64,000 bases of DNA from Curtobacterium pusillum (GTDB lineage: Bacteria > Actinomycetota > Actinomycetes > Actinomycetales > Microbacteriaceae), in contig CP018783.1 of NCBI GenBank assembly GCA_002025645.1, positions 1,426,001 through 1,490,000 on the forward strand, in the 5' to 3' direction. Shown piece after piece: positions 3-38,277 of this stretch. Numbering within the stretch: the stretch's first letter is position 1; every line of letters begins with the position of its first letter. A program made the position numbers and the translations under genes. A model generated the notes under the pieces. It did no database searches, was not told the DNA's origin, and was given only the letters and a program-made list of their open reading frames with translations.

Positions 3-587
3 GCGGTGCTGACCGTGTTCTTCGCGTCGATGGCGGCGTTCGCGCTGTCGCGGCTCGTGTTCCGCGGTCGGAACATCGCGTTCCTGCTCATCATCCTCGG
101 GATCATGATCCCGACGCAGGTGCTGATCATCCCGATCTTCCAGGAACTCAACGCCGTCGGGCTGCTCAACACCTACTGGTCGGTGATCTTCCCGCAGGTG
201 CCCGCCGTGATCGCGGTGTTCATCTTCAAGCAGTTCTTCGACGGGATCCCGAAGGAACTCGAGGAGGCCGCCCGCATCGACGGTGCCAGCATCTGGAAGG
301 TCTACTGGTCGGTCATCCTGCCGCTGTCCCGTCCGGTCATCGCGGCCGTCACGATCCTGACGTTCGTCGGGGTGTGGAACAACCTGCTGCTGCCGCTGTT
401 CGTGCTGTCCAACCCGGACCTCATGACGATCCCGGTGGGACTCGCCACGGTCCAGGGCAGCTTCGGTCAGCGCTACGCGGACATCCAGGCCGGGGCGATC
501 CTGGCGGCGTTGCCGCTGATCATCCTCTACCTGATCTTCCAGCGGCAGATCGTGGAGGGTGTGACCGGGTCCGGCCTCAAGGGCTGA
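3..587 (+). CDS. Carbohydrate ABC transporter permease, MalG type (5' end outside window)
   Basis: Inner-membrane subunit of a binding-protein-dependent sugar importer. Only the last ~194 codons are visible; the frame is open to the window edge, so the gene starts upstream, and family members are usually 270-300 residues. The EAA loop that docks on the ATPase is clear (EEAARIDGASIW, about residue 86 of the visible part), with hydrophobic segments before and after it and a short Lys-Gly C-terminus typical of the family. Substrate cannot be told from this subunit; the binding protein and partner permease should lie upstream. A long palindrome begins 15 nt after the stop. Confidence 0.9.
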   Translation, partial: AVLTVFFASMAAFALSRLVFRGRNIAFLLIILGIMIPTQVLIIPIFQELNAVGLLNTYWSVIFPQVPAVIAVFIFKQFFDGIPKELEEAARIDGASIWKVYWSVILPLSRPVIAAVTILTFVGVWNNLLLPLFVLSNPDLMTIPVGLATVQGSFGQRYADIQAGAILAALPLIILYLIFQRQIVEGVTGSGLKG

Positions 588-601
588 CGCGACCCCACAT
601 C

Positions 602-643
602 GGACTGGAGGCGCGGTGCCAGCTGGCACCGCGCCTCCAGTCC
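602..643 (+). terminator. Perfect 42-bp palindrome, terminator-like (family member 1)
   Basis: Arms GGACTGGAGGCGCGGTGCC and its exact complement flank AGCT. It lies just past the sugar permease stop codon and is preceded by GACGCGACC overlapping the stop. There is no T-run, so if it terminates transcription it does so as a U-less hairpin of the kind proposed in high-GC actinobacteria. Related palindromes occur near 5924, 15908, 20927, 22915, 38228 and 53848. Confidence 0.7.
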
Positions 644-696
644 GTCTGTGGTCTGGTCCGCCCCCGCCTGCCGGAAGTGCGCGCTCCTGGTGGAAT

Positions 697-960
697 CGGG
701 CGTACCCGGTCGGAAGTTTCGTGGCGGTACGCCCGTTCCAACCGGGTATCGCACGCGCTATGGGAAAGAACGGGCATACCCGGCGGCGTCGGCGGTACCG
801 GGCGGAACGGCGGTACCGGGCGGAACGGCGGTGCCCAGCGGAACCGGGCGTACCTGCCGGAATCGGGCATACCTGCCGGGATCGGGCGTACCTGGCGCGA
901 AGTTTCGTGGCGGTACGCCCGGAAACGCCAGGTATCGCCCGCGCTTTGGGAAAGAACGGG
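697..960. repeat. Two 78-nt hairpin repeats separated by 18-nt and 19-nt tandem repeats
   Basis: This fills most of the 383-bp gap between the sugar permease and the siderophore-interacting protein. Copies A (697-774) and B (883-960) share a 22-nt identical core (713-734 and 899-920) and the same tail GGGAAAGAACGGG. Each can form an outer stem: TACCCGGT with ACCGGGTA in A, TACCTGGCG with CGCCAGGTA in B. The two differences are compensated on both sides. A competing inner stem, GGGCGTAC with GTACGCCC, is present in both. Between them lie three 18-nt units (791-844) and two 19-nt units (845-882) that read into copy B. No convincing protein is encoded. Function unknown. Confidence 0.8.
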
Positions 961-970
961 CTGCGAACGG

Positions 971-1798
971 TCAGGCGGAGACGGACTCGCGTGCCTCGTG
1001 CTTCCAGAACCCGGAGAACGTGATGCGGGACTTCGGCAGGCCGGCACGGTGCAGGTGCCGACGCCCCTCGGTCGCGAGCGTCGACTCCCCCACGACGAAC
1101 GCGTACCCGCGGTCGTCGGCCGGCACGTACCGCTGCAGTTCGGCGAGCGCCGCCCGACCGGGCACGGTGTGCTCGGTCTCGGCGCGGACGATCCACGTCA
1201 CGGTGACCCCGTCCGGGACGTCGAGGTCGCGGACGTCCCCGGCGGTGGGGACCTCCTGGATGATGCGGCCGACGGTGTCCCGCGGCAGTGCGGCCGCGAT
1301 GCCGACGACGCCGGGCAGGCCCGTCTCCTCGGCGGCGATGACGACCTCGCTCGTGCCCTCGGGGACGTCGAAGATGCAGCCCTGGTCGAGCATCGCCAGC
1401 TCGTCACCCGGGCGGGCGGCGCAGGCCCAGATCGCGGCGCGGCCCTCGGGTTCGCCGTCGGCTCCGGTGTGCACGACGAAGTCGATGTCCATCTCGCGCG
1501 ACTCGGCGCGGAACTCGGCGACGGTGTAGTTCGCGCAGTGCGGTCGGACGTCCTCGGGGATCGCGAGGAACGTCGGCCACCACTTCTTGCCGTCGAGGTC
1601 CGGCATCCGGAAGGCGTCCTGGTCGGGGCGCTGGACGAACAGCCGGAACCAGTGGTCGAAGCCGAGGTAGCCGAACTCGGCGAGGTCGTCCCCGGTCACC
1701 GTGACGCGCTGCATCGACGGCGTCGTGCGCTCGCTCCGGAGGACACGAGCACGGAAGAGCCGGGGGTTCTCGGGCAGGAGCCGCGGGGTCTTCGCCAT
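971..1798 (-). CDS. Siderophore-interacting protein (flavin-dependent ferric-siderophore reductase)
   Basis: 275 residues, the usual size for the SIP family, which releases iron from imported siderophores by flavin-dependent reduction in the cytoplasm. The N-terminal half matches the FAD-binding barrel (MQRVTVTGDD near residue 29; DIDFVVHTGADG near 104), and the C-terminus ends in the typical FSGFWKHE stretch. The start codon touches an iron box (1798-1816) shared with the divergent permease genes. A TAGCCT -10 inside the box ends 6 nt before the ATG, predicting a leaderless, iron-repressed transcript. Its partner genes are the FecCD/ATPase/lipoprotein set at 1818-5909. Confidence 0.9.
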   Translation of the reverse strand: MAKTPRLLPENPRLFRARVLRSERTTPSMQRVTVTGDDLAEFGYLGFDHWFRLFVQRPDQDAFRMPDLDGKKWWPTFLAIPEDVRPHCANYTVAEFRAESREMDIDFVVHTGADGEPEGRAAIWACAARPGDELAMLDQGCIFDVPEGTSEVVIAAEETGLPGVVGIAAALPRDTVGRIIQEVPTAGDVRDLDVPDGVTVTWIVRAETEHTVPGRAALAELQRYVPADDRGYAFVVGESTLATEGRRHLHRAGLPKSRITFSGFWKHEARESVSA

Positions 1799-5923: not shown

Positions 5924-5967
5924 CGGACGGGAGGCACGGTGCCAGCTGGCACCGTGCCTCCCGTCCG
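5924..5967. terminator. Perfect 44-bp palindrome between convergent genes (family member 2)
   Basis: Arms CGGACGGGAGGCACGGTGCC and its complement flank AGCT. Compared with the palindrome at 602, T-to-G and G-to-A changes in the left arm are each matched on the right, so pairing is kept. GACGCAACC overlaps the lipoprotein stop just upstream. It lies between the convergent lipoprotein and penicillin-binding protein genes and could serve both strands. Confidence 0.75.
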
Positions 5968-15907: not shown

Positions 15908-15951
15908 CGGACTGGAGGCGCGGTGCCAGCTGACACCGCGCCTCCAGTCCG
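15908..15951 (-). terminator. Near-perfect 44-bp palindrome after the mannitol dehydrogenase-type gene (family member 3)
   Basis: Arms CGGACTGGAGGCGCGGTGCC and complement around AGCT, with one mismatch (GAC for GGC). Read in the direction of the gene it follows, the order is stop codon, GACGCGACC, palindrome, the same order as at 602 and 5924 although the gene here is on the minus strand. Confidence 0.7.
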
Positions 15952-38227: not shown

Positions 38228-38277
38228 CACCGGACGGGAGGCACGGTGCACCACCGCCCCGCGCCTCCCGTCCGGTG
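38228..38277 (+). terminator. Palindrome between binding-protein and oxidase genes (family member 6)
   Basis: Outer arms CACCGGACGGGAGGC and complement enclose a 20-nt loop region with a weaker inner pair (CGGTG/CACCG). GACGCRACC is not conserved before it. It separates the abundant binding protein from the downstream enzymes and may lower their expression. Confidence 0.6.

What the first reader, a model, noticed from the sequence alone, without database searches (positions are those of the whole stretch)
697..960. Paired 78-nt hairpin repeats with compensating base changes and competing stems
Copies A (697-774) and B (883-960) differ at two paired positions of the outer stem (TACCCGGT/ACCGGGTA against TACCTGGCG/CGCCAGGTA), with both partners changed so pairing is kept. 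A second stem (GGGCGTAC/GTACGCCC), identical in both, overlaps the first and cannot form with it. Short tandem units join the copies. This is the pattern of a selected RNA or DNA structure, not of random repeats. It sits 10 bp past the stop of an iron-regulated gene. I know of no named element like it.
Basis: seen in the sequence. Interest (0 to 1): 0.72.

Follow-up and report, generated by a model that had tools for sequence, protein, structure and literature searches.

The report
Curtobacterium dispersed intergenic hairpin repeat
The two hairpin repeats are neighbouring copies of a short, modular DNA repeat scattered about fifty times through this Curtobacterium chromosome, mostly just after genes; they are probably a non-coding selfish or mobile sequence rather than a special RNA switch for the iron gene beside them.

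Summary
The two copies are real. They are tandem members of a dispersed, modular palindromic repeat: 47 full-length copies kept from 80 matches in this genome, and matches in 49 of 66 genomes of the genus, taken to be Curtobacterium from record titles. In a family draw, 8 of 398 genomes and 1 of 85 genera match. The core is 75 nt: a 39-nt palindrome (H2) and a head (H1), followed by one to about six decaying 19-nt units that repeat one palindrome arm. Of 127 placed copies, 67 lie between convergent genes, 58 in tandem gaps (28:30, no strand preference), 2 in divergent gaps, none inside genes. Orthologous sites are filled, empty or hold another class. No Y1/RAYT transposase domain in 66 genomes. 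Best reading: a lineage-specific REP/BOX-like DNA repeat with an unknown mobiliser.

The parts
697..735 (+). Copy A, main palindrome H2 (39 nt); its arms are inverted 19-nt units; distal part of the stem disrupted
736..771 (+). Copy A, head region with weak hairpin H1 (742-767), ending GGGAAAGAAC
659..696 (+). Copy A, decaying 19-nt units (about 678-696 and 659-677)
   Evidence: (row 1426697+)
772..882 (+). Array of six 18-19-nt units belonging to copy B, running from B's palindrome to the head of A
   Evidence: (row 1426883+), split by eye; part of it is family D2
883..921 (+). Copy B, main palindrome H2 (39 nt)
922..957 (+). Copy B, head region with weak hairpin H1 (928-953); 13 nt from the stop codon of the neighbouring gene
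601..644 (.). Separate perfect palindrome P (22-nt arms), found at this locus in 26 of 30 genomes, own included; a neighbour, not part of the 75-nt element
971..1798 (-). Gene for a siderophore-interacting protein; its 3' end faces the element
3..587 (+). 3' part of an ABC transporter permease gene converging on the same spacer

Best explanation
A and B are a local tandem duplicate of a Curtobacterium-specific, non-coding, dispersed palindromic repeat of REP/BOX-like kind. Shown: one core module (head H1 plus 39-nt palindrome H2) followed by a directional array of 19-nt units; many copies per genome; intergenic, near stop codons, on either strand; presence, absence, array length and sequence class vary at orthologous sites; the arms of H2 stay complementary while their sequence changes between classes. 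Inferred: the element acts as DNA. A trans-acting enzyme that is not a Y1/RAYT transposase recognises the palindrome and spreads copies. Unequal recombination or slippage between the units then expands, shrinks and homogenises arrays in place, and selection removes copies that fall in genes or promoters. The matched changes in A and B would come from the sharing of one unit class within an element, not from selection on an RNA switch.
For: Own genome: 47 full-length copies, all on the 3.97-Mb contig (33 of 80 rows dropped by hand, 32 opposite-strand readings and 1 partial match; 150 of 4052 candidates were scored, so this is a lower bound). Genus: matches in 49 of 66 genomes with either model. 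Family: 8 of 398 genomes, all 8 in the window's genus; 1 of 85 genera. Named records: 46 of 47 stretches with an exact palindrome come from records titled Curtobacterium. Four sequence classes share one register: GI 79, GII 28, R 26, RG 6 of 139 copies, by a crude letter rule (stricter GII 24). H2 pairing over all 139: 0.852 observed, 0.765 with arms swapped, 0 of 2000 swaps as high; within class R 0.821 against 0.780, 3 of 2000. Covariation score 0.217 against 0.139 shuffled for H1 and H2 together. Placement: 67 convergent, 58 tandem (28 with, 30 against transcription), 2 divergent, 0 inside genes, of 127 placed. Units decay outward: mean identity to the arm 0.71-0.72 at the first place, 0.41-0.60 at the second, about 0.25-0.30 at the fifth, against background 0.29. 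Seven same-locus pairs of one class are 83-96% alike, other pairs of a class 73-85% on average. Orthologous sites: SIP locus 19 of 30 with the element or a remnant; PhzF locus 22 of 42, truncated copies included (by eye).
Against: No mobiliser was found. Within GI, GII and RG, H2 as a whole shows no significant covariation, so the pairing signal rests largely on a few class changes. The two empty-site comparisons read (G029 against G024/G025; G059 against G032/G053) give differences of about 150-160 nt without a clear target-site duplication, and deletion cannot be told from insertion. The SIP site is occupied in many species, so there is long persistence as well as turnover. G024 and G025 share eight loci paired (97.7-99.2% alike), so recent movement is not shown. 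Three same-locus pairs are of mixed class and only 61-65% alike, so not every pair is a fresh duplicate.
Confidence: 0.66

Rival explanations
1. Host-selected 3'-end structure: the palindrome acts as a bidirectional, U-less transcription terminator or insulator between converging transcripts, and is kept or replaced by another hairpin when lost.
For: 67 of 127 placed copies lie between convergent genes and 2 of 127 in divergent gaps. H2 complementarity is kept between classes. At the PhzF site 5 of 42 genomes carry unrelated long hairpins in the same spacer (G010, G018, G030, G031, G046).
Against: 11 of 42 PhzF sites have only a 22-75-nt spacer in its place (by eye), and 17 of 66 genomes have no match at the thresholds used. 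No T-run terminator in 540-1020. At the SIP site a different palindrome, P, is the steadily kept one (26 of 30), and 36 of 47 copies have a P-like arm within 300 nt.
Confidence: 0.2
2. Selected RNA (or ssDNA) switch with two mutually exclusive stems.
For: The two stems do overlap in A and B. Over all classes the outer-stem columns covary (score 0.276 against 0.200 shuffled, 0 of 500; 0.495 paired against 0.461, 2 of 2000). Folded alone, A and B prefer the outer stem. In the 17 copies most like A and B the outer stem pairs at 0.735, more than H2 as a whole at 0.654.
Against: Within each class the outer stem shows no covariation (GI, GII, R, RG), nor in stricter subsets. The between-class signal fits units of one class repeated 19 nt apart. 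No strand preference in tandem gaps (28:30). No Rfam match above a gathering score in 1-2400.
Confidence: 0.07
3. Classical MITE of a DDE-type insertion sequence with terminal inverted repeats.
For: Short, non-coding, dispersed, hairpin-forming.
Against: No terminal inverted repeat or target-site duplication could be defined at the two empty sites read. IS110-type transposase domain in only 8 of 66 genomes and none in this one; other transposase families were not searched.
Confidence: 0.07

Closest known systems
REP/BIME elements with RAYT (TnpA-REP)
   Same: Intergenic palindromes of 20-50 nt in high copy, often paired or arrayed (PMC8266576, PMC3733652, passages read).
   Different: No GTAG or CGTC tag beside the palindrome (by eye). 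No Y1 transposase domain in 66 genomes. Directional 19-nt unit array.
Untagged REP-like families (named in PMC3733652 for M. tuberculosis, D. radiodurans, Bordetellae, Brucellae, cyanobacteria)
   Same: Palindromic repeats without a conserved terminal tag (passage read).
   Different: Those families were not compared in sequence here. The word beginnings 'actinobacteri' and 'clavibacter' do not occur in that paper's main text.
BOX elements of Streptococcus pneumoniae
   Same: Modular: fixed end modules with a variable number of tandem middle units; structured; many copies; uneven between species (PMC3049150, passages read).
   Different: Here units follow the hairpin on one side and repeat one arm of it. 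No sequence relation was tested. BOX has terminal inverted repeats and target-site duplications, not seen here.
SPRITE repeats of S. pneumoniae
   Same: Hairpin repeats enriched near the 3' ends of genes (PMC3049150, passages read).
   Different: SPRITE has a U-rich tract like an intrinsic terminator; none in 540-1020 here.

Membership tests
RAYT-linked REP element | Palindrome of 20-50 nt, high copy, intergenic | tested here: met
   39-nt palindrome; 47 copies; 0 of 127 placed copies inside genes
RAYT-linked REP element | Conserved GTAG (or CGTC) tetranucleotide at the edge of the palindrome | tested here: not met
   By eye, no such conserved tag beside H2 in 47 copies with flanks or 64 aligned copies; GTAG occurs inside the stem of class R
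RAYT-linked REP element | Y1 (HUH) transposase gene in the genome | tested here: not met
   PF01797: 0 of 66 genus genomes; control rings in 5 of 14 known genomes
BOX-like modular repeat | Fixed modules plus a variable number of tandem units | tested here: met
   Head + H2 + decaying 19-nt units
BOX-like modular repeat | Terminal inverted repeats and target-site duplication | tested here: inconclusive
   Two empty-site comparisons gave no clear duplication or ends
BOX-like modular repeat | Sequence homology to boxA/boxB/boxC | not tested
   No BOX sequence was compared
Intrinsic terminator | Stem followed by a T-run | tested here: not met
   0 sites in 540-1020, both strands; other copies not scanned
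Known structured RNA (Rfam 15) | Match above the gathering score | tested here: not met
   8 hits in 1-2400, all below gathering scores, none overlapping A or B
MITE of a resident insertion sequence | Ends shared with a resident transposon | not tested

The most novel reading that the evidence does not exclude
A palindromic repeat family that spreads and rewrites itself without any Y1 transposase: an unknown process copies the hairpin module and replaces both arms together, so that one site switches from class G to class R (G000 against its relative G019) with pairing intact, and adds units next to the hairpin while old units decay outward. That would be a RAYT-independent route for REP-like repeats.
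Probability: 0.3. Interest if true: 0.65.

Novelty: new member of a known kind. Interest (0 to 1): 0.42.

Why it matters
How REP-like repeats without a RAYT spread is open: PMC3733652 says that CGTC repeats seem to lack a dedicated transposase and that untagged families need study (passages read). This family is abundant (38 of 49 carrier genomes show 22 or more matches, opposite-strand readings included), patchy (49 of 66), seen in one of 85 genera drawn, and has filled and empty orthologous sites, so that gain, loss and arm rewriting can be measured. It also warns that compensating changes between two paralogous repeats need not mean a selected RNA fold.

Tried and rejected
Coding or peptide reading: two long frames across the spacer (648-1529 +, 577-1047 -) have no Pfam match. 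Rfam: no family above its gathering score. Composite transposon: opposite-facing copies 6.8 kb apart in G016 flank an ABC sugar operon with an alpha-mannosidase-like gene (functions named from memory; no transposase recognised by eye). IS110 as mobiliser: 8 of 66 genomes, none here. Plasmids and phages: no match to one 121-nt query of class GI. H-type pseudoknot between the two stems: considered and dropped on geometry, not computed. Early counts on 17 copies showed no covariation for H2; the signal appeared only when several classes were put together, so much of it rests on a few class changes. Over all classes that stem does covary, which I assign to unit sharing. The class rule put four GI-like copies into GII; leaving them out gives 24 copies and the same result for the outer stem. 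Literature: the listings showed no description of such a family in Curtobacterium; Curtobacterium genome notes that matched 'palindromic' words (PMC4698388, PMC5054313, PMC7953303) were seen only as listings and abstract beginnings, and the library lacks most subscription papers.

Full report
What is there. The spacer 588-970 lies between the converging 3' ends of an ABC permease gene (3-587, +) and a siderophore-interacting protein gene (971-1798, -). It holds a perfect 22+22-nt palindrome P (601-644) and two copies, A and B, of a longer repeat that match over 109 nt at 80%.

It is a dispersed family. A DNA search of the window's own genome found more copies. Seventeen copies, A and B among them (aligned), gave model R1, which lists 80 matches in the genome at E up to 1 (150 of 4052 candidates scored). 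By hand I dropped 33 rows, 32 opposite-strand readings of the same palindromes and one partial match, and kept 47 full-length copies. All lie on the 3.97-Mb contig. In head-first view each reads: head of 36 nt with a weak hairpin H1, then a 39-nt palindrome H2, then one to about six 19-nt units that repeat the right arm of H2 in the same direction. Units lose similarity outward: mean identity to the arm 0.71-0.72 at the first place, 0.41-0.60 at the second, about 0.25-0.30 at the fifth, against a background of 0.29. The units at 772-882 are those of B. Where the H2 arm letters and unit letters differ between copies they tend to differ together: class G uses GGGCGTACCTGG, class R uses GCGCGTAGGAGG, and RG is intermediate.

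Which stem is conserved. I aligned 64 copies without a gap (all were chosen as 75-nt matches, while some matches of other lengths exist). H2 has pairs that swap wholesale, for example G-C 30 and C-G 30 of 64 at columns 3/37; cells with both sides changed number 144 against 88 in shuffles, for H1 and H2 together. On 139 copies, H2 pairs at 0.852, against 0.765 when the arms are swapped between copies (0 of 2000). Inside class R the gain is small but present (0.821 against 0.780, 3 of 2000); inside GI, GII and RG it is not significant for the whole stem (170, 631 and 1911 of 2000). GII was set by a two-letter rule that took in four GI-like copies. Without them (24 copies) the outer stem gives 0.750 against 0.747, and in the 17 copies most like A and B 0.735 against 0.726; H2 shows no covariation in those subsets either, and as a whole pairs less (0.654) than the outer stem in the 17, because its distal part is broken there. 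Across all classes the outer stem does covary. The reason visible in the letters is that the partner stretch in the head of R and GII copies is itself a 19-nt-spaced copy of the unit, so it changes class with the rest. H1 is largely conserved but does not covary.

Where copies sit. With a simple codon-usage gene finder trained on the window I placed 47 copies of this genome and 80 of 89 copies from other genomes (9 lacked a called gene on one side; SIP-locus copies left out; some of these copies are orthologues of each other). Of 127: 67 convergent, 58 tandem, 2 divergent, none inside genes. In tandem gaps 28 face with transcription and 30 against it. In the window, gaps of 60 bp or more are 14 tandem, 3 convergent and 7 divergent. 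An orientation-blind, promoter-avoiding element fits DNA better than a sense-strand RNA.

Distribution. The genus search finds matches in 49 of 66 genomes with R1 (E up to 0.001) and 49 of 66 with a broader model R2 (E up to 1e-5); match counts include opposite-strand readings and the filters are strict, so weak copies are missed. In the family draw, 8 of 398 genomes match, all 8 in the window's genus; 1 of 85 genera (12 candidates scored per genome, 370 rows without a match not listed). An exact pattern of the palindrome in named genomes hits 47 stretches, 46 in records titled Curtobacterium and one in a 3.2-kb contig titled Cellulosimicrobium MAG, which may be mis-binned. On a tree of 30 genomes built from the SIP gene and its upstream 1.5 kb, the 4 genomes without matches need 4 changes at the least.

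Orthologous sites. At the SIP locus, read by eye in 30 genomes, own included (first 520 nt after the gene), 19 hold the element or a remnant and 11 do not; three of the 11 (G030, G031, G040) have another gene next and no P, so they are not strictly comparable. The close relative G019 has a class R copy where G000 has class GII. Arrays differ strongly in length (G007, G008, G016 have several heads). GII copies recur at this locus in G003, G007, G008, G016, G047 and G054, so the subfamily has persisted there. At the PhzF site (44 genomes taken, own included, 2 unresolved), by eye 22 of 42 hold the element or a truncated copy, 11 have only 22-75 nt, 5 carry unrelated long hairpins and 4 hold other sequence. 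G029 against G024/G025 gives one site with and without a copy, a difference of about 150 nt with no clear duplication. G024 and G025 share eight loci paired at 97.7-99.2% identity; two of the loci taken from them found no partner there, but not all their copies were held.

Mobiliser. Y1 transposase domain: 0 of 66 genomes, while the control search rings in 5 of 14 known genomes. IS110 domain: 8 of 66, none here. Other families were not tested.

Neighbour P. In 36 of 47 copies a P-like arm lies within 300 nt (one mismatch allowed), and in 13 the P right arm starts 22-25 nt before the head, 7 of them at exactly 23. A rough control is 6 of 58 window stop codons with both arms within 300 nt downstream; the two measures are not identical. 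P also occurs alone in the window (5924-5967, 15908-15951). At the SIP locus P is present in 26 of 30 genomes, own included, with arm changes that are mostly matched (17 to 22 of 22 pairs kept), so P, not the finding's element, looks like the constrained 3' structure at this spot.

Judgement. Shown: an abundant, modular palindromic repeat, found in one genus only in these searches (apart from the one oddly titled contig), whose H2 stem keeps complementarity between classes. Inferred: DNA-level spread by an unknown factor, plus local unit duplication and homogenisation. The nearest kinds are untagged REP-like repeats and, in layout, BOX elements. It is a new family of a known kind rather than a new riboswitch-like element.

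Noticed in passing
601-644, 5924-5967, 15908-15951, 38228-38277: A second dispersed palindrome family P (CGGACTGGAGGCGCGGTGCC...), without a T-run at 601-644; at the SIP locus it is present in 26 of 30 genomes, own included, with mostly matched changes in the two arms.
   Followed up: partly
L256, L258, L274 and L260, L265 (PhzF site): Two further long hairpins, GGTGAGCAGAAGATGTCGGGTC... and CAGGTTCCGGACACAGCA... (letters vary slightly), stand in the same spacer in genomes that lack the element there.
   Followed up: no
L087: A 3171-bp contig titled Cellulosimicrobium MAG carries a perfect Curtobacterium-type palindrome, possibly a binning error.
   Followed up: no
L148, L149, L151, L153, L154 downstream of the SIP gene: In G022, G004, G026, G006 and G027 what looks like an extra gene (VOC-like, named from memory, not searched) lies right after the SIP gene; in G022, G004 and G006 the element follows that gene instead (by eye).
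   Followed up: no
G000:C2: None of the 47 copies lies on the second contig of about 0.57 Mb, where about six would be expected by length.
   Followed up: no
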